A DNA stretch of 64,000 nucleotides from assembly GCF_014126825.1 (NCBI RefSeq), contig NZ_CP059900.1:1674001-1738000 (forward strand), in the 5' to 3' direction. This DNA is from Tomitella gaofuii. Lineage in GTDB: Bacteria; Actinomycetota; Actinomycetes; Mycobacteriales; Mycobacteriaceae. The notes beneath the pieces are model-generated. The model saw only the letters and a list, made by a program, of their open reading frames with translations, ran no database searches and was not told where the DNA came from. Below, in pieces: positions 40,772 to 64,000 of this stretch. A program made the position numbers and the translations under genes. Position 1 is the first letter of the stretch, and every line of letters starts with the position of its first letter.

Positions 40772-40784
40772 CGTGCGCTCCTGT

Positions 40785-40828
40785 GAGGCCGTCTTGTCGC
40801 GCACCGGGTACGGCCCCGCTCGTCCGGG
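40785..40828 (-). ncRNA. Guanidine-III (ykkC-III) riboswitch in the leader of the guanidinium exporter
   Basis: On the minus strand the leader contains CCGGACGAG, then GGCCGTACCCGGT, then GACAAGACGGCC, in the same order and nearly the same spacing as the compact guanidine-III pseudoknot. CCGGACGAG and the CCGTACCCGG core match my memory of the known consensus essentially base for base. CCGG can pair with the later CCGG, and GGCCGT pairs with ACGGCC. It ends 13 bases before the ATG and overlaps the region of the ribosome site, so guanidine binding would expose or free the start. Confidence 0.88.
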
Positions 40829-41021
40829 AGCCCGGACGGGCCCTGCCCGAGATGGTCGCACATGCCGCCCCCGGACCCACAGACCGTCCGCGACCGCGGG
40901 ATGCGCGCGGCTTCGGCGCCCCGAGGCGGCTTCACTTCGGCGGCCGCGGCATGACACCATCTAGGCTGTGAGCCGCGTGCGGCGCAGCGCGGGAGCGATT
41001 CCGCGGCGCGCGGCGGCGCGT

Positions 41022-56582: not shown

Positions 56583-56990
56583 ATGCCAGGGCCCTCACTC
56601 GAAGAGTTAGAGACGCGACGAGCACGGTTGTATGAGCAGTTGGTGCAGGTCGGAGACTTCCGCCGCGGCTCGGTCAGTGAGAATTACCGGCGCTGCGGCA
56701 AGCGGAACTGCGCCTGCGCCCGCGCGGGCCATCCCGGGCATGGTCCGCGGCTGTTGTGGACCCGGTCGGTGCCCGGCCAGGGCACCCGGGGCCGGCAACT
56801 CGCGCGCGGGGAAGTCGCCAAGGTCCGCGCGGAGTTGGCGGCCTATGAACGGTTCGCCGCGTTGACCGCGCAACTCACTGAGGTCAACGAGCTGATCTGC
56901 GAGGCGCGGCCGCCCGATACGCCGGCGCAGAGCCCGCCGGCGTCGGCAGACGCCGAAAAAGGGGGCTCGTCGACACGCTCGCCGCCGTGA
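56583..56990 (+). CDS. ISKra4 accessory protein OrfA (DUF6788-like), copy 1
   Basis: The product is 135 residues from ATG 56583 (ATG 56568 is possible). It has an N-terminal helix, VSENYRRCGKRNCACARAGHPGHGP (four Cys and two His, zinc-ribbon-like) and a C-terminal helix. It overlaps the transposase start by four bases (GTGA). It is identical in copy 2. It is probably DNA-binding and required with the transposase. Confidence 0.75.
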   Translation: MPGPSLEELETRRARLYEQLVQVGDFRRGSVSENYRRCGKRNCACARAGHPGHGPRLLWTRSVPGQGTRGRQLARGEVAKVRAELAAYERFAALTAQLTEVNELICEARPPDTPAQSPPASADAEKGGSSTRSPP

Positions 56991-58351
56991 TCATCGGCGA
57001 GGTCGAGGACCTGGCGGCGCTCGCGGCCCGCCCGCTACGGCCCGCCGCCTCCGCCGACGGAGGCGGTGGCGGCACCGGTATGGCGGCGATCGAACAGGCG
57101 GTGCGCGCGGCGATGCTGCGGGTCGGGGCGGTGGTGCTCGAAGAGCTGTTGGGCGCCGACGCGGGGTATCGCGGCCCGCGGATCGACTGTGGCGGTGGGC
57201 ATACCGCACGGTTTATCGGGTACCGGGACAAGTCGATCGACACGGTTGTTGGGCGGATCCGGTTGCGGCGGGCCTATTACCACTGCGCCTGCTGCGGCAG
57301 CGGTGTGGTGCCGCGGGACGCCGAGGCGGGTGTGGCCGGCCGGTCGTGTTCGCCGGGGCTGGCGGGCGCGTGTGCCCGGGCCGGGGCGGCCATGCCGTTT
57401 GCGGCGGCGGCGGCGCTGGTCGGCGATTTGGCCGGCATCGAGGTCGGGGCCAAACGACTCGAACGTGCCGCCGAGGCGTCCGGGGCTGTGGTGGCGGCGG
57501 CCGTCGATGCCGAGGCCGCCGCGATCACGGCCGGGCGTCTGGCGGTGTTGCCGCCTCCGGGGCGACCGGACATGCTCTACATCGCCGTTGATGGCACCGG
57601 GGTTCCGATGCGTCCGGCCGAGACGGCGGGGCGGGCCGGAAAGTATCCGGACGGGCGGGCGCGGACCCGGGAGGTGAAACTGGCGTGCGTGTTCACCCAG
57701 ACCGGGTGCGACCGTGACGGGAGTCCGGTCCGCGACGCCGATTCGACGAGTTATGTGGCCACGTTCGCCCCGGCCGACCAGTTCGGCGCACTCGCCCGGG
57801 CCGAGGCCGCCCGCCGCGGCAGCGAGCATGTGCGCCAGCTCGTGGTCCTCGGTGACGGGGCGCCGTGGATCTGGAACCAGGCCACCGCCCGCTGGCCCGA
57901 AGCCACCCAGATCGTCGATCTCTACCATGCCCGGGAACACCTCTACGAGATCGCCGGGCTGCTCGCCGACACGCTCGGCGACGATCTGGAGGCGTGGACG
58001 GGCGAACGGATCGCTGAGCTCGACGCCGGGCACATCGATGCCCTCGTCGCGGCGGCACGCCGGCCCCTGGCCCGTGAGGGCAAATGCCACATCGTCGACA
58101 AGGCCCTGCCGTATTTCCAGCGCAACGCCCACCGCATGCAGTACGCCCGGTTCCGACGGCTGGGCATGTTCGTCGGTTCGGGCACCGTCGAGGCCGGCTG
58201 CAAGTCGATCATCGGGGCAAGACTCAAGCAGTCCGGGATGCGCTGGTCGATCCGCGGGGCTACCGACATCATCGCCCTGCGTTGCGCCGCGGGCAGCGGC
58301 CGGTGGGACCACGTCGGTACCCCGGACAACAACCAGATGGCCACCGCATGA
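56987..58351 (+). CDS. ISKra4-family transposase, copy 1
   Basis: The product is 454 residues from GTG 56987. A zinc-finger region (YHCACCGSGVVPRDAEAG) precedes the DDE catalytic core: YIAVDGTGVPMRP (first Asp), LVVLGDGAPWIWN (second Asp) and GSGTVEAGCKSIIGARLKQSGM (Glu). All three acids are intact, so the copy is likely active. Confidence 0.9.
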   Translation: MIIGEVEDLAALAARPLRPAASADGGGGGTGMAAIEQAVRAAMLRVGAVVLEELLGADAGYRGPRIDCGGGHTARFIGYRDKSIDTVVGRIRLRRAYYHCACCGSGVVPRDAEAGVAGRSCSPGLAGACARAGAAMPFAAAAALVGDLAGIEVGAKRLERAAEASGAVVAAAVDAEAAAITAGRLAVLPPPGRPDMLYIAVDGTGVPMRPAETAGRAGKYPDGRARTREVKLACVFTQTGCDRDGSPVRDADSTSYVATFAPADQFGALARAEAARRGSEHVRQLVVLGDGAPWIWNQATARWPEATQIVDLYHAREHLYEIAGLLADTLGDDLEAWTGERIAELDAGHIDALVAAARRPLAREGKCHIVDKALPYFQRNAHRMQYARFRRLGMFVGSGTVEAGCKSIIGARLKQSGMRWSIRGATDIIALRCAAGSGRWDHVGTPDNNQMATA

Positions 58352-58401: not shown

Positions 58402-60093
58402 GTGTGCGACACGTTTGTAGGTTCCGCCGGTTGGCGCTGCTAGCGTGAAAGTCTGGTTGTGGTAGTGGCAACCAGATGATGGAGGCAGCGATGCCAGGGC
58501 CCTCACTCGAAGAGTTAGAGACGCGACGAGCACGGTTGTATGAGCAGTTGGTGCAGGTCGGAGACTTCCGCCGCGGCTCGGTCAGTGAGAATTACCGGCG
58601 CTGCGGCAAGCGGAACTGCGCCTGCGCCCGCGCGGGCCATCCCGGGCATGGTCCGCGGCTGTTGTGGACCCGGTCGGTGCCCGGCCAGGGCACCCGGGGC
58701 CGGCAACTCGCGCGCGGGGAAGTCGCCAAGGTCCGCGCGGAGTTGGCGGCCTATGAACGGTTCGCCGCGTTGACCGCGCAACTCACTGAGGTCAACGAGC
58801 TGATCTGCGAGGCGCGGCCGCCCGATACGCCGGCGCAGAGCCCGCCGGCGTCGGCAGACGCCGAAAAAGGGGGCTCGTCGACACGCTCGCCGCCGTGATC
58901 ATCGGCGAGGTCGAGGACCTGGCGGCGCTCGCGGCCCGCCCGCTACGGCCCGCCGCCTCCGCCGACGGAGGCGGTGGCGGCACCGGTATGGCGGCGATCG
59001 AACAGGCGGTGCGCGCGGCGATGCTGCGGGTCGGGGCGGTGGTGCTCGAAGAGCTGTTGGGCGCCGACGCGGGGTATCGCGGCCCGCGGATCGACTGTGG
59101 CGGTGGGCATACCGCACGGTTTATCGGGTACCGGGACAAGTCGATCGACACGGTTGTTGGGCGGATCCGGTTGCGGCGGGCCTATTACCACTGCGCCTGC
59201 TGCGGCAGCGGTGTGGTGCCGCGGGACGCCGAGGCGGGTGTGGCCGGCCGGTCGTGTTCGCCGGGGCTGGCGGGCGCGTGTGCCCGGGCCGGGGCGGCCA
59301 TGCCGTTTGCGGCGGCGGCGGCGCTGGTCGGCGATTTGGCCGGCATCGAGGTCGGGGCCAAACGACTCGAACGTGCCGCCGAGGCGTCCGGGGCTGTGGT
59401 GGCGGCGGCCGTCGATGCCGAGGCCGCCGCGATCACGGCCGGGCGTCTGGCGGTGTTGCCGCCTCCGGGGCGACCGGACATGCTCTACATCGCCGTTGAT
59501 GGCACCGGGGTTCCGATGCGTCCGGCCGAGACGGCGGGGCGGGCCGGAAAGTATCCGGACGGGCGGGCGCGGACCCGGGAGGTGAAACTGGCGTGCGTGT
59601 TCACCCAGACCGGGTGCGACCGTGACGGGAGTCCGGTCCGCGACGCCGATTCGACGAGTTATGTGGCCACGTTCGCCCCGGCCGACCAGTTCGGCGCACT
59701 CGCCCGGGCCGAGGCCGCCCGCCGCGGCAGCGAGCATGTGCGCCAGCTCGTGGTCCTCGGTGACGGGGCGCCGTGGATCTGGAACCAGGCCACCGCCCGC
59801 TGGCCCGAAGCCACCCAGATCGTCGATCTCTACCATGCCCGGGAACACCTCTACGAGATCGCCGGGCTGCTCGCCGACACGCTCGGCGACGATCTGGAGG
59901 CGTGGACGGGCGAACGGATCGCTGAGCTCGACGCCGGGCACATCGATGCCCTCGTCGCGGCGGCACGCCGGCCCCTGGCCCGTGAGGGCAAATGCCACAT
60001 CGTCGACAAGGCCCTGCCGTATTTCCAGCGCAACGCCCACCGCATGCAGTACGCCCGGTTCCGACGGCTGGGCATGTTCGTCGGTTCGGGCAC
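58402..60093 (+). mobile_element. ISKra4-family insertion sequence, copy 2 (3' end cut by IS3)
   Basis: It appears identical to copy 1 up to 60093, in the same orientation, with a unit spacing of 1908 bases. The sequence then changes abruptly to an IS3-type left end. The missing part is the last 86 codons of the transposase and the right end. Confidence 0.85.
58491..58898 (+). CDS. ISKra4 accessory protein OrfA, copy 2
   Basis: It is identical in sequence to the copy 1 protein (56583-56990), with 135 residues and the same Cys/His cluster. It is intact and followed by an overlapping but truncated transposase. Confidence 0.75.
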   Translation: MPGPSLEELETRRARLYEQLVQVGDFRRGSVSENYRRCGKRNCACARAGHPGHGPRLLWTRSVPGQGTRGRQLARGEVAKVRAELAAYERFAALTAQLTEVNELICEARPPDTPAQSPPASADAEKGGSSTRSPP

Positions 60094-60112
60094 TGAACCG
60101 TCTCGGGTTTGA
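58895..60112 (+). pseudogene. ISKra4-family transposase, copy 2, truncated by IS3 insertion
   Basis: It is identical to copy 1 as far as F-V-G-S-G-T (60093), then reads six foreign residues of IS3 end sequence to a stop at 60112. The catalytic Glu in GTVEAGCK is lost, so the protein cannot catalyse transposition. Confidence 0.85.
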
Positions 60113-60880
60113 TGGAGGGTAGTTAACACGGAAGGACCGCTCCTCCATGCCCCGCCCATCGAAGTACCCCGCCGAGCTCCGCGACCGCGCCACCCGCATG
60201 ACCGTCGAGGCCCGCAAGGACCCCGAGACGCGCACCGGCGCGATCCGGCGGATCGCCGAACAACTCGGCGTGCATCCTGAAGCCCTGCGCAACTGGGTCA
60301 AACAAGTCGAGTCCGGCCAGGCCGACCTTCCCGGCCTGGCCACGGTGTCCGACCTGGAACGGATCCGCCAACTCGAGCAGGAGAACCGGGAGTTGCGCCG
60401 CGCCAACGACATCCTGAAGTCCGCATCGGCTTTCTTCGCGGCGGAGCCAGGTCGCCCACATCGGTGATCGTCGCGTTCATCGACGACCACAAGCACGAGT
60501 GGGGAATCGAGCCGATCTGCAGAGTGCTCACCGAGCACGGCTGCCCGATCGCCCCCTCGACCTACTACGCCGCCAAGCAGCGCACGCCCTCGGCCCGCGC
60601 CGTACGGGACGGCGAGCTCACAGAGCTGATCATGGAGATCTACAACGACTCCAAGCAGGTGTACGGCATCCGCAAGATCCACGCCGAACTGCGCCGACGC
60701 GGCACCAAAGTCGCCCAGTGCACCGTGGAACGGCTCTGCCGCGACCTCGGGATACGCGGTGTCGTGCGCGGCAAGTTCCCGCGCAGGCCACGCCTCGCGC
60801 CGGAGACCGACCGGCCCGACGACCGAGTCGAGCGCGAGTTCACCGCAGACGGTCTGAACGAGCTGTGGGTCGCCGACATC
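60094..60880 (+). mobile_element. IS3-family insertion sequence (3' part displaced by the RIT element)
   Basis: The left end TGAACCGTCTCGGGTTTGAT is of the type used by actinobacterial IS3 elements. OrfA and the first part of OrfB follow. OrfB stops being IS3-like at 60880, where palindromic sequence of the next element begins. The remainder may lie beyond the window, on the far side of the RIT insertion. Confidence 0.8.
60147..60467 (+). CDS. IS3-family transposase OrfA
   Basis: The product is 106 residues with an HTH: TRTGAIRRIAEQLGVHPEALRNWVKQ. A leucine-zipper-like helix follows, LERIRQLEQENRELRRANDILK. It binds the element ends and multimerises with OrfB. The stop overlaps the GTG of OrfB. 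Confidence 0.9.
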   Translation: MPRPSKYPAELRDRATRMTVEARKDPETRTGAIRRIAEQLGVHPEALRNWVKQVESGQADLPGLATVSDLERIRQLEQENRELRRANDILKSASAFFAAEPGRPHR

Positions 60881-60883
60881 TAA
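60464..60883 (+). pseudogene. IS3-family transposase OrfB, truncated
   Basis: The first 139 residues are intact: the HTH_21-like region (YGIRKIHAELRRRGTKVAQCTVERLCRDLGIRGVVRG) and the start of the integrase core N-E-L-W-V-A-D-I, which normally continues T-Y-V. The frame ends at the RIT palindrome. Only the first catalytic Asp remains; the other two are missing in the window. Confidence 0.88.
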
Positions 60884-60906
60884 TGCCGACGTCGGCATTA
60901 GATGTC
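60875..60906. repeat. 32-base perfect palindrome at the RIT/IS3 junction
   Basis: GACATCTAATGCCGAC is followed directly by its reverse complement. The motif ATGCCGA or its complement occurs here twice and again at 60909, 60926 and 60979. Confidence 0.9.
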
Positions 60907-60988
60907 CTATGCCGACCTCGGGACTATGCCGATCATCCGGGTGAGGGGGCAGGTCAGCCGGATGCTGGGAGTTGAAAGGTCGGCATAG
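60907..60988. repeat. Inverted repeat in the left end of the RIT element
   Basis: CTATGCCGACCT (60907-60918) pairs with AGGTCGGCATAG (60977-60988). GACTATGCCGA also occurs in between. The set looks like multiple recombinase-binding sites. Confidence 0.75.
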
Positions 60989-61039
60989 TCAGGTCGTCGG
61001 GGCGACGCTTCAGGCACAGGTTGCCTGGAGGTGAGGTCA

Positions 61040-62283
61040 ATGACGCAGAGATCTGCGACGGCGCGGCCGTATGCGGACCGGGTTCCGCGGATACCGGTGG
61101 GGCCCTTGGCATCGACAGTGCTGGAGGAGTGCCGACGGTGGCTGGTGGCACAGGGGTATTCGCCGGGCTCATCGACCCCGGTGGTGAACCTGCTGGCACG
61201 CCTGAGCGTGTGGATGCAGGAGGTCGGTGCCGGGATCGACGACATCGACGAGGAGCTGCTGGACCGGTTCGTCGTCCGGGAACGATCTCGGGTGGTCGTG
61301 TGCACCACGGTGAAGTGCTCCTGGAACACGATGCGCAAGTTCTTGACCGCTGCCGGGTACCTGGCCCCGGCCCCGGGCGAGGTTGACCCGGTCACGCCGG
61401 CGCAGGTCGCGGTCACGACATGGTGCTCGTGGATGCGGTACGAGTGCGAGCTGAGCGAGCAGACCATCAATGCTCGTCGCCGTTACGCTGGCGGGCTGCT
61501 GGAGGCGATCACCGGAGCCGACGGCAGCCTGGACTGGGACAGGCTCGACACCGACGTGGTCAATGATTACGTCGCCGGGCGTGGTCGCCCCTACGGTCAG
61601 GCGGCGCGTGTTCATATCGTCGGCGCGGTCCGCAGCCTGCTGCGTTGGGCGTTGAGCACCGGCCGTCTCGATCGGGATATCAACGCCGGGATCCTGCAGC
61701 CTGCCTTCGACCGGGCGCGGGTTGCCGAAAGGAGTGAGCAGCGAGCAGGTCGGTGCCCTGCTGGCCGTGTGCGATCCTGCCACGCCGATCGGGGCCAGGG
61801 ACCGCGCGGTCATCACCGTCCTGGTCCGCCTGGGCCTGCGCGCCGGTGAAGTCGCCCGCCTGCGGCTGGAGGATATCGACTGGGCCAACGGGACAACTGA
61901 AGGTCACCGGTAAGGGCCGTGAGCACGCGCTGCCGATCCCTTGCGACGTCGGTCAGGCGCTGACGGTCTGGCTTCGGGTGCGCCCGGCCGCCCTGGACCG
62001 GGCGTGTTCGTGCGGATGCGGGCACCACGGAAGATGATGACGACCCAGGGGCTCTCCGGGATCGTCGCCCGGCTGTCCGGCCTGGCGGGGATCGACCCCA
62101 TCTACGCTCATCGCCTGCGGCACACCGCGGCGATGGACGTCCTGGCCGCGCGGCGGGACCCTGACCGAGGCCAGGGAACTCCTCGGCCACGCCTACACGG
62201 TCACCACGATGTCCTACGCGAAGGTCGAGACCTGGTCTCGCTGCGCGAGCTGGCCGTCCCGTTCGGCGCAGGTGCCCCGATGA
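61040..62283 (+). pseudogene. RIT tyrosine recombinase 1 (RitA-like), frameshifted
   Basis: ATG 61040 has GGAGGTGAGG just upstream. The N-terminal SAM-like DNA-binding part is intact in one frame to about 61725. The catalytic domain then appears in alternating frames: LVRLGLRAGEVARLRLEDIDW (Arg), GQLKVTGKGREHALPIP, YAHRLRHTAAMDVL (HxxR) and ELLGHAYTVTTMSYAKV (His and the Tyr nucleophile). About five one-base indels separate them. Repaired, it would have about 410 residues. Confidence 0.75.
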
Positions 62284-63212
62284 CGACTCTTCGCCAGCAC
62301 CTGGGCCGGTACCTGGCGCTGCGCCGCGGATCTGGGCTTCCAGCTCGACGACGTCGAACGTCAGGTCGGACTGTTCTGCACCTGGCTCGAAGCTCGTGGC
62401 CAGGTGGACACCTTCACCATCGAGGACGCGGTGACCTGGGCCCGGGCCAACCCCGAAGCGCATCCGTCGTGGTGGGCCACCCAGCTGTCGCTGGTGCGCC
62501 GCTTCGCGGCCCACCTGCACGCCAACGGTGTCGACGTGCCGGTCATCCCTCTCCGGGCTGCTGCCGGCCCGCAAGCCGCGGGCGGTGCCCTTCATCTACA
62601 GCCAGGACGACGTCGACGCCCTCCTTGTCGCCTGCGAGGCCGAGTTCACCGACGAACGGATCGCGGCCACCGTGCGCACCGTCATCGGGCTGCTGGCGTG
62701 CACAGGCCTGCGGATCGGCGAGGCGCTGGCCCTGGGCGTCGACGACGTCGACCTCGACAACCACGTCCTGGTCGTCCAGGCCGGCAAGTCTGCCCAGCGG
62801 CTCGTGCCCGTGCACCCTCGACCATCACAGCGTTAGAGGACTACCTGGCCCTGCCGGCCCGGGTGGCCACGAATCCCGACCCCCACGGCCCGGTCTTCGT
62901 GACCGCCAAGGGCACCGGGTACGTCTACGTTTCCTTTTACGCCCTGTTCAAACGAGCCCGCGAGGCTGCCGGCCTCCTCCCACGCGGCAGGGCCCGCCCC
63001 CGCCTGCACGACCTGAGGCACACCTTCGCCACGGCCCACATGACCGCGGCCTACGCCACGGCCACGATCCCGAGCGGGTCCTGTCCCTGCTGGCGACCTG
63101 GCTCGGGCACTCCGACGCCGCGCACACCTACTGGTACCTGACCTCGACGGCGGACCTGATGGCCCTGGCCGCCGGCCGACTCGAACCCGCCGACGAGAGC
63201 GAAACCTCATGA
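62280..63212 (+). pseudogene. RIT tyrosine recombinase 2 (RitB-like), frameshifted
   Basis: It begins MTTLRQHLGRYLALRR at ATG 62280. Further segments lie in different frames: ERQVGLFCTWLEARGQVDTFTIEDAV, ACTGLRIGEALALGVDDVDL (Arg), RLHDLRHTFATAH (HxxR) and TWLGHSDAAHTYWYLTST (His and Tyr). About four indels are needed to join them. The end, E-S-E-T-S at 63212, overlaps the next start. Confidence 0.75.
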
Positions 63213-64000
63213 CCGCCCTGGCTACCAGCCTGCAGACCTACTTCACCACCTTCGCCCGCACCCAGCGTGACCTGTCGGCGAACACGATCAGCTCCTACCG
63301 CGACACCTGGCGGATGCTGCTAAAGCACCTGAGTACCACGCTAGGAACCCCGGTCGACGCCCTCGACCTGGAGGACCTGACCGCGGCCAACGTCACCGCC
63401 TTCCTGGAGCACCTGCAGCGAGCGCGGCAACAACGCAAAGAAGACCCGTAACACCCGTCTGACCGCGATCCGCTCGGTCCTGGCCCGTGCCCTGCCCGAC
63501 CATCCCGAGCACGCCGCGACCATCACCCAGGTGCTTGCAATCCCACCACGGCGCACCACCAGGCCCGTCATCGAGTTCCTCACCCCCGCCGAGACCCAGG
63601 CCCTGCTCAACGCGCCCGACCAGCAGACCTGGACCGGGCATCGCGACCACGCGCTGCTCCTCATGGCTGTGCAGACCGGACTTCGCGTCAGCGAGATCAC
63701 CTCGCTGACCTACGACGACATCCACCTCGGCTCCGGACCCCACATCGCCTGCACCGGCAAGGGACGACGCCAGCGCATCACTCCGCTGACGAAGACGACA
63801 GTGACCACGATGACGAACTACCTCACCGAGCGCAGGTCCCGACTCGGGAACGCGCTGTTCTGCGGACCGCACGGACAACAACTGTCCCGCGACGCCCTCG
63901 AGCGCCGCCTGGCCCCGACACGTCAGCACCGCCACGACCACCTGCCCCAGCATCGGCGCCAAGCACGTCACCATGCACACCCTGCGACACACCGCAGCGA
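63209..64000 (+). pseudogene. RIT tyrosine recombinase 3 (RitC-like), frameshifted and cut by the window end
   Basis: It begins MTALATSLQTYFTTFARTQRDLSANTISSYRDTWRMLL at ATG 63209. A shift near 63424 leads to NTRLTAIRSVLARALPDHPEH, MAVQTGLRVSEITSLTYDDI (Arg) and GKGRRQRITPLTK. Another near 63915 leads to THTLRHTAA-type sequence (HxxR) at the window edge. The Tyr lies outside. Confidence 0.75.

What the first reader, a model, noticed from the sequence alone, without database searches (positions are those of the whole stretch)
60875..64000. Recombinase-in-trio (RIT) element inside an IS3 transposase gene
Three back-to-back tyrosine recombinase genes with overlapping start and stop codons sit behind palindromic DNA and interrupt IS3 OrfB at its catalytic domain. 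RIT elements are rarely described and their transposition mechanism is poorly known. The interrupted OrfB gives an unusually clear left junction.
Basis: partly seen in the sequence, partly recalled or inferred. Interest (0 to 1): 0.75.

Follow-up and report, generated by a model that had tools for sequence, protein, structure and literature searches.

The report
RIT transposon homing into transposase genes
A small mobile element made of three recombinase genes sits twice in one genome, in opposite directions, in the same active-site codons of another mobile element's transposase gene, and comparing it with its relatives shows how such elements probably choose their targets and insert.

Summary
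The finding is real. Window 60907-64282 (its last 282 bases lie past the window) is a 3.37-kb recombinase-in-trio (RIT) element inside IS3 orfB. The genome holds a second copy, with three intact genes, at the same orfB codon of another copy of that IS3, in the OPPOSITE orientation. The inverted repeats mirror each other; the 20-bp palindrome does not, as it sits at one end only.

Many relatives in actinobacteria and proteobacteria, including one on the RIT-bearing plasmid pHG1, show the same anatomy: inverted repeats, 6-bp cores, and an arm-arm palindrome at one end, ritA or ritC (21:19, 6 undetermined). Empty sites in nine homologues of one target show exact insertion at a 6-bp core, with the target's core left at the non-palindrome end. 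Best model: a circle whose junction is a palindrome holding two head-to-head core sites, either usable, so orientation does not matter.

Of 41 targets scanned, 32 are transposase, IstB or site-specific recombinase genes, several cut at a conserved catalytic motif; target class partly follows RIT phylogeny. The element is a new member of a known family. The mechanism and targeting rule address questions that the papers I could read call open; Ricker 2013 could not be read.

The parts
60094..60880 (+). 5' part of the host IS3 element: left end TGAACCG.., orfA 60147-60467, orfB from 60464 up to ..WVADI
   Evidence: NCBIfam NF033516 IS3 transposase, match ends at profile position 223; Pfam HTH_Tnp_1 in orfA, HTH_21 in orfB
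60875..60880 (+). 6-bp core c1 (GACATC), codons D-I of orfB, palindrome side
   Evidence: core length fixed by empty sites of a related insertion
60881..60900 (.). 20-bp perfect palindrome (arm-arm), at this end only
60901..60906 (.). second 6-bp core c2 (GATGTC, inverted GACATC)
60907..60991 (+). left terminal inverted repeat with three ATGCCGA-type sites (60909 +, 60926 +, 60980 inverted)
60907..64000 (+). RIT element (3376 bp here; continues to about window position 64282, then core c3 GACATC, orfB remainder from 64289, IS3 right end about 64833)
61040..62283 (+). ritA, frame-broken in this copy; intact 412-aa sister in copy B
62280..63212 (+). ritB, frame-broken in this copy; intact 310-aa sister in copy B
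63209..64000 (+). ritC (runs to about 64200), frame-broken in this copy; intact 329-aa sister in copy B

Best explanation
A RIT transposon that moves by site-specific tyrosine recombination and homes to a conserved stretch of transposase genes. Inferred cycle: the two ends are joined into a circle whose junction is a palindrome, [ritC-end arm]-6bp-[arm.arm]-6bp-[ritA-end arm], that is, two head-to-head core sites. RitA/B/C recombine either core site with a 6-bp core in the target whose first bases match. One end of the inserted element then keeps the 20-bp arm-arm palindrome plus the circle's two 6-bp cores, and the other end receives the target's own 6 bp. Because the two core sites are equivalent, the element enters in either orientation. 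In this clade the target is the codons around the first Asp of the DDE domain of IS3/rve-type transposases. SHOWN by comparison: exact insertion at a 6-bp core with the target core at the non-palindrome end (one target, nine empty homologues), palindrome at either end, opposite orientations at one site, recurrent target. INFERRED: the circle, which strands are exchanged, the roles of the three proteins, and whether the donor copy is lost (cut-and-paste) or kept (copy-out).
For: Two copies in one genome at the same orfB codon, opposite orientation, palindrome on the orfB 5' side in both. IS3 flanks differ more (7 of 1331 bp) than the RIT copies (1 of 3364 bp), which suggests two insertions rather than one duplicated unit. 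R. lusitanum plasmids p3/p4: elements with 0 substitutions and 1 gap in 3488 bp, the 200 bp on one side (dnaE2 in p3, its homologue in p4) differ at 15 of 199 bp, same site, opposite orientation. Genome G364: elements with 0-1 substitutions over about 3370 bp in different genes, palindrome at the ritA end in g1, g2, g4 and at the ritC end in g3 and x. Empty site of g3: 9 of 9 homologues examined read left flank + 6 bp (GACGAC/G/T) + right flank, matching the core at g3's non-palindrome end; 2 of 4 IS3 homologues examined span the window's site and also lack the insert. End with palindrome: ritA 21, ritC 19, undetermined 6, several from one genome. Core positions 1-2 agree between c1 and c3 in 27 and 28 of 28, position 6 in 11 of 28. 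All six catalytic residues aligned with XerD are present in copy-B RitA, RitB and RitC, and in 30 of 30 loci except one residue of one RitC.
Against: No circle or transposition has been seen; everything is read from integrated copies. The IS3-versus-RIT divergence is modest: 4 of the 7 IS3 differences lie within 5 bp, and counted as one event Fisher p is 0.025 (0.0009 otherwise). The two window-genome copies have identical cores, so they cannot show which core came from where. In R. lusitanum the other flank is alike only over about the first 25 bp. Exceptions: Mesorhizobium AR07, Citricoccus and EbN1 have inverted repeats but no palindrome seen, Polaromonas has one at both ends, B. septentrionale was not resolved; RopB4 and NGR234 palindromes are poor (5 and 4 of 10 mismatches) and PbFT54's non-palindrome end also scores as a palindrome; G483 has the palindrome but a wider spacing (22 instead of 17) to its end. 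RIT copy A carries 17 gap positions against 0 in its IS3 flanks, unexplained.
Confidence: 0.75

Rival explanations
1. One RIT insertion into IS3, then duplication of the whole IS3::RIT unit, then inversion of the RIT between its inverted repeats (by homologous recombination or by the Rit proteins) in one copy.
For: The two copies share the whole IS3 unit (window 60094 to about 64833) and no RIT-free copy of this IS3 was found in the genome (2 hits, both interrupted). Inverted repeats 97.5% identical over 80 bp are present.
Against: IS3 parts have diverged more than the RIT parts (modest statistics). The same opposite-orientation pattern occurs in R. lusitanum in clearly diverged targets, where a recent duplicated unit does not fit, and the ritA:ritC palindrome ratio is 21:19 across many targets.
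Confidence: 0.2
2. The palindrome belongs to the target (RITs insert next to pre-existing palindromes) or is a scar of another element.
For: It lies on the orfB 5' side in both copies.
Against: Absent from 9 of 9 empty homologues of the g3 target and from both IS3 homologues that span the site; its arms resemble the element's own ends across clades.
Confidence: 0.03
3. The targeting of catalytic motifs is a by-product: these are simply the best conserved DNA stretches of abundant multi-copy genes, and the recombinases have no particular tie to mobile elements.
For: 5 of 41 scanned targets are other genes (dnaE2 twice, ParB, SRAP, TIGR03299) and g3 lies in a gene with the same DNA motif but no family match. 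A DNA-level motif suffices.
Against: Does not contradict the mechanism; it competes only with a reading of RITs as specialised parasites of mobile elements. 32 of 41 in mobile-element genes looks like a heavy bias, but no background rate was measured.
Confidence: 0.4

Closest known systems
RIT elements (C. metallidurans CH34, C. necator pHG1, A. aromaticum EbN1)
   Same: Three adjacent overlapping tyrosine-recombinase genes in order A-B-C with ATGA overlaps, about 3.5 kb, terminal inverted repeats and palindromes, insertions in transposase genes (passages; tree)
   Different: This clade mostly targets IS3/rve-type transposases; a one-sided palindrome with 6-bp cores and orientation indifference is not described in the passages read
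SEs (strand-biased circularizing integrative elements) and Tn554
   Same: Tyrosine recombinases, a 6-bp spacer or footprint carried from the old site and a 6-bp target core kept at one end (PMC10214605, passages); Tn554-type elements disrupt radC (PMC3788773, one passage), as some RITs do (PMC2864759 passage)
   Different: In SEs the 6 bp go to fixed ends; here the end varies with orientation and the joint would hold two core sites. Different gene sets
[quoted passage not shown]
   Same: Several recombinase genes acting together (PMC10214605 passages)
   Different: Four genes, and the GinC product is said to lack the catalytic motif, whereas all three Rit proteins keep the catalytic residues
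Inteins and group I introns (recalled, no call)
   Same: Insertion at conserved active-site codons as a way to find homologous targets
   Different: RITs are not spliced out and destroy the target gene

Membership tests
RIT elements | three adjacent tyrosine-recombinase genes, same strand, short overlaps | tested here: met
   copy B: 412, 310 and 329 aa with ATGA overlaps; window copy has the same order but broken frames
RIT elements | the three proteins belong to the RitA, RitB and RitC families respectively | tested here: met
   each group is one side of a branch, supports 98/97, 100/100, 100/94, with pHG1 and EbN1 trios inside
RIT elements | length about 3.5 kb with terminal inverted repeats and overlapping palindrome | tested here: met
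   3376 and 3369 bp; repeats 97.5% over 80 bp; palindrome at one end only
RIT elements | catalytic residues in all three proteins | tested here: met
   residue numbers of XerD from recall, letters confirmed in the call; copy B only, the window copy is broken
RIT elements | RitA with two core-binding domains, RitC with an extra C-terminal helix (PMC8138268 passage) | not tested
   no structure predicted; Pfam finds one SAM-like domain in RitA at 131-206, with about 130 residues before it
RIT elements | mobility | tested here: inconclusive
   near-identical copies in different genes and diverged targets argue for recent movement; no experiment
Tn554/SE | gene set tnpABC or intA-tfp-intB-srap | tested here: not met
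   the element holds only the three Rit-type genes, which group with other RIT trios; no Tn554 or SE protein was put in the tree

The most novel reading that the evidence does not exclude
RITs are a large group of homing transposons that live off other mobile elements. Each clade's recombinases read the DNA that encodes one conserved, often catalytic, motif (first DDE Asp of IS3/rve transposases; IstB Walker B; HxxR of tyrosine recombinases; others) and insert there in either orientation through a palindromic double-core joint. The three proteins together solve a problem I know of in no other tyrosine-recombinase transposon: a junction with two inverted, competing core sites.
Probability: 0.5. 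Interest if true: 0.8.

Novelty: new member of a known kind. Interest (0 to 1): 0.7.

Why it matters
[quoted passage not shown] PMC3414803 (passages) found it hard to see how three recombinases fit the reaction and found no convincing binding sites beyond an inverted repeat and palindrome. The comparison here gives exact ends, core length, a predicted joint and predicted targets, so each of these becomes a simple PCR or plasmid test. If the targeting rule holds, RITs are a natural brake on transposases and a set of recombinases with different, predictable DNA specificities.

Tried and rejected
Ricker 2013, Van Houdt 2009 and Nielsen 2017 are not held, so prior knowledge there is unchecked. Literature searches made. 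Idea that IS3 moved the RIT as cargo: no 3-bp target duplication is visible by eye around either IS3 copy, and the flank divergence speaks against it. Structure prediction was not attempted: its stated rule admits only window proteins and loci of certain other tools, and the window copy is broken. I did not establish the organism.

What was left out. Loci not resolved or not used: Citricoccus L073, EbN1 L071, Polaromonas L116, B. septentrionale L119, G734b L053 (palindrome near its contig end), R. opacus 1CP L118 (fetched, not analysed), G977c/d L102-L103 (palindrome, no trio gene found), G734:C199 (not fetched). G364g2 (same as g1) was dropped before the counts; the core counts also drop G000B and, for c1-c3, G1550, StrNBC1483 and RhizNZLR1. 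The 30-element count mixes elements found by protein with elements found by the palindrome itself. Counting only loci found by gene similarity: 18 of 19 genome copies have the palindrome (not G156, where only one end is on the contig; G002's is on two flanking contigs, G483's has odd spacing, G734b's core-arm pattern was not confirmed), and 12 of 17 plasmid loci analysed have it at one end (two poor, DMU1's other end not found, PbFT54's other end also scoring); the other five are listed above or in the Against line. Reading frames of the targets were picked by me among six, in part by recognisable motifs, and many family matches are to fragments below the curated cut-offs. Of the non-self loci, L135-L143 were examined for empty sites; L144 and L145 (short hits) were not.
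Full report
What is there. The window is bases 1674001-1738000 of a one-contig 4.35-Mb genome whose organism I did not establish. At its right edge an IS3 element (left end about 60094, right end about 64833) carries orfA and the first part of orfB. OrfB reads ..NELWVAD-I and is cut there. Reading on: core GACATC (60875-60880), a perfect 20-bp palindrome (60881-60900), GATGTC (60901-60906), the element (60907-64282), GACATC (64283-64288), and orfB again, ACC TAC GTC = T-Y-V. The element holds ritA (61040-62283), ritB (62280-63212) and ritC (63209 to about 64200).

Second copy. The same genome has another copy at about 93781-97161. Its three genes are intact, 412, 310 and 329 aa, each start overlapping the previous stop as ATGA. 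The window copy differs from it by 1 substitution and 17 gap positions over 3364 aligned bases, and the gaps break all three frames; the IS3 parts have 7 substitutions in 1331 bases and no gaps. A true pseudogene and unpolished long-read sequence inside a repeat are both possible. Both copies sit in the same IS3 at the same codon, but the RIT lies in opposite orientations relative to orfB, and the palindrome is on the orfB 5' side in both. No RIT-free copy of this IS3 was found in the genome.

It is a RIT. A tree of RitA, RitB and RitC from 30 loci with E. coli XerD and lambda Int puts the three proteins one each into three groups that also hold trios from pHG1 and EbN1 plasmid 2; PMC3414803 names both plasmids as carrying RITs, and PMC2864759 names pHG1 (passages). 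The two outgroup proteins lie outside the three groups, beside RitA with weak support. RitA, RitB and RitC of copy B keep all six catalytic residues, and so do 30 of 30 loci in each family except one residue in one RitC.

Anatomy is shared. In the window's clade each end typically carries ATGCCGA-type sites at 0 and +17 and an inverted one 54-55 further. At one end a second, back-to-back pair of arms forms the palindrome, separated from the element by a 6-bp core. Among 30 elements with both ends in hand, 28 have at most 3 of 10 mismatches in the 20 bp outside the core at the palindrome end, and 1 of 30 (PbFT54) at the other (part of this set was found through the palindrome, so see the similarity-only counts, 18 of 19 and 12 of 17, in Tried and rejected). 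The palindrome is at the ritA end in 21 and the ritC end in 19 elements, 6 undetermined (copies within one genome are counted singly). Pattern searches for it found 5 of 396 genomes of the phylum (the window genome being one) and 6 of 293 of G885's order (two of them known before); the reversed control found none in the listed rows, though for the bare palindrome it hit once in the window genome. Exceptions are listed in the Against line.

How insertion works. For copy g3 of genome G364, 9 of 9 homologues examined of the interrupted gene in other genomes of its genus have an empty site: left flank, six bases GACGAC/G/T, right flank. The core at g3's non-palindrome end is GACGAC, so the target's six bases stay there, and the palindrome with the other two cores came with the element. 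Two of four IS3 homologues examined span the window's site with six bases and no palindrome. Between circle-derived core c1 and target-end core c3, positions 1 to 6 match in 27, 28, 24, 20, 23 and 11 of 28. Three copy pairs fit a simple pedigree in which the joint takes c3 from the non-palindrome end and c2 from the other: x to g4, g4 to g3 (G364), and R. lusitanum p4 to p3 (cores; inference, not tested; g1 does not fit it). The R. lusitanum pair is the cleanest natural experiment: elements with 0 substitutions in 3488 bases, lying next to dnaE2-type sequences that differ at 15 of 199 bases on one side, in opposite orientations; on the other side the two are alike only over about 25 bp. In genome G002 two palindrome-bearing flanks of IS1634 type, 15 of 599 bases apart, show the same site.

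Targets. I scanned 41 interrupted reading frames, one flank each, with NCBIfam or Pfam. 32 match transposase, rve, IstB or site-specific recombinase families (many as fragments below the curated cut-off); 5 match other families (dnaE2 twice, ParB, SRAP, TIGR03299); 4 match nothing or only a weak HTH (g3, G483 with 46 residues, G1550, the M. intracellulare plasmid). G1042 and G1249 were not scanned. The cut falls at the same profile position in unrelated insertions: IS3 model position 223 in G000, G364g1, G885, G717 and G1406 and 222 in G204; IstB model 157 in three RITs; XerC model 242 in four and 239 in two. The IS3-type targets of the window's clade are 68-85% alike over 151-200 aligned bases before the cut, G483 aside. 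By recall, these positions are or adjoin the first DDE Asp, the Walker B Asp, and the HxxR of tyrosine recombinases; the IS481, IS701, IS630 and IS21 cuts look similar, while those in serine recombinases, IS66, IS256, two kinds of IS1634 site and dnaE2 are not clearly catalytic. Target class follows the RitC tree in part: 9 changes against a shuffled mean of 15.5, none of 200 shuffles as low; by class, DDE 0 and tyrosine recombinase 1 of 500 shuffles as low, but IstB 25, other 93 and IS1634 500 of 500 (28 rows).

Literature. PMC3414803 (passages) reports RITs in a Tn6049-like transposase gene and in radC, an inverted repeat and overlapping palindrome near ritA and ritC, and nothing that fits usual core and arm sites. 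PMC2864759 (passage) reports RITs in an IS66 tnpA and in radC. PMC10214605 (passages) says RIT target specificity and movement are not tested and gives SEs and Tn554 a 6-bp footprint. PMC8138268 and PMC5385486 were seen in passages only. I did not find the one-sided palindrome, 6-bp cores, orientation indifference or catalytic-motif targeting of RITs in these passages or in the search listings; Ricker 2013, by title the main RIT paper, is not held.

Verdict. The element is a new member of a known family. The value lies in what two copies at one site, and their relatives, show about an untested mechanism.

Noticed in passing
window 56987-58351 and 58895-60112: Two near-identical ISKra4-family transposase genes in tandem (NF033572); the second is cut at about 60094 by the IS3 element that carries the RIT, so three mobile elements are nested.
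   Followed up: partly
window 40783-40846, minus strand: Guanidine-III riboswitch at 61 bits.
   Followed up: no
G364:C1 4024000-4031000 (L047): A fifth RIT copy whose two flanks apparently come from two different IS3-type genes (read from peptides, no family search of the right flank), suggesting recombination between RIT copies.
   Followed up: partly
L105, L111, L120: Rhizobial RITs sit in dnaE2 or SRAP genes, with Y-family polymerase or ImuA-type genes nearby: a second, SOS-type kind of target.
   Followed up: partly
L074 and L073: Mesorhizobium AR07 and Citricoccus RITs have long inverted repeats but no palindrome seen at either end; they may be immobile or use another joint.
   Followed up: no
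L016 versus L017: All gaps between the two RIT copies lie inside the RIT, in the middle of the repeat, and none in the IS3 flanks, as expected if repeats were left unpolished, but not proven.
   Followed up: no
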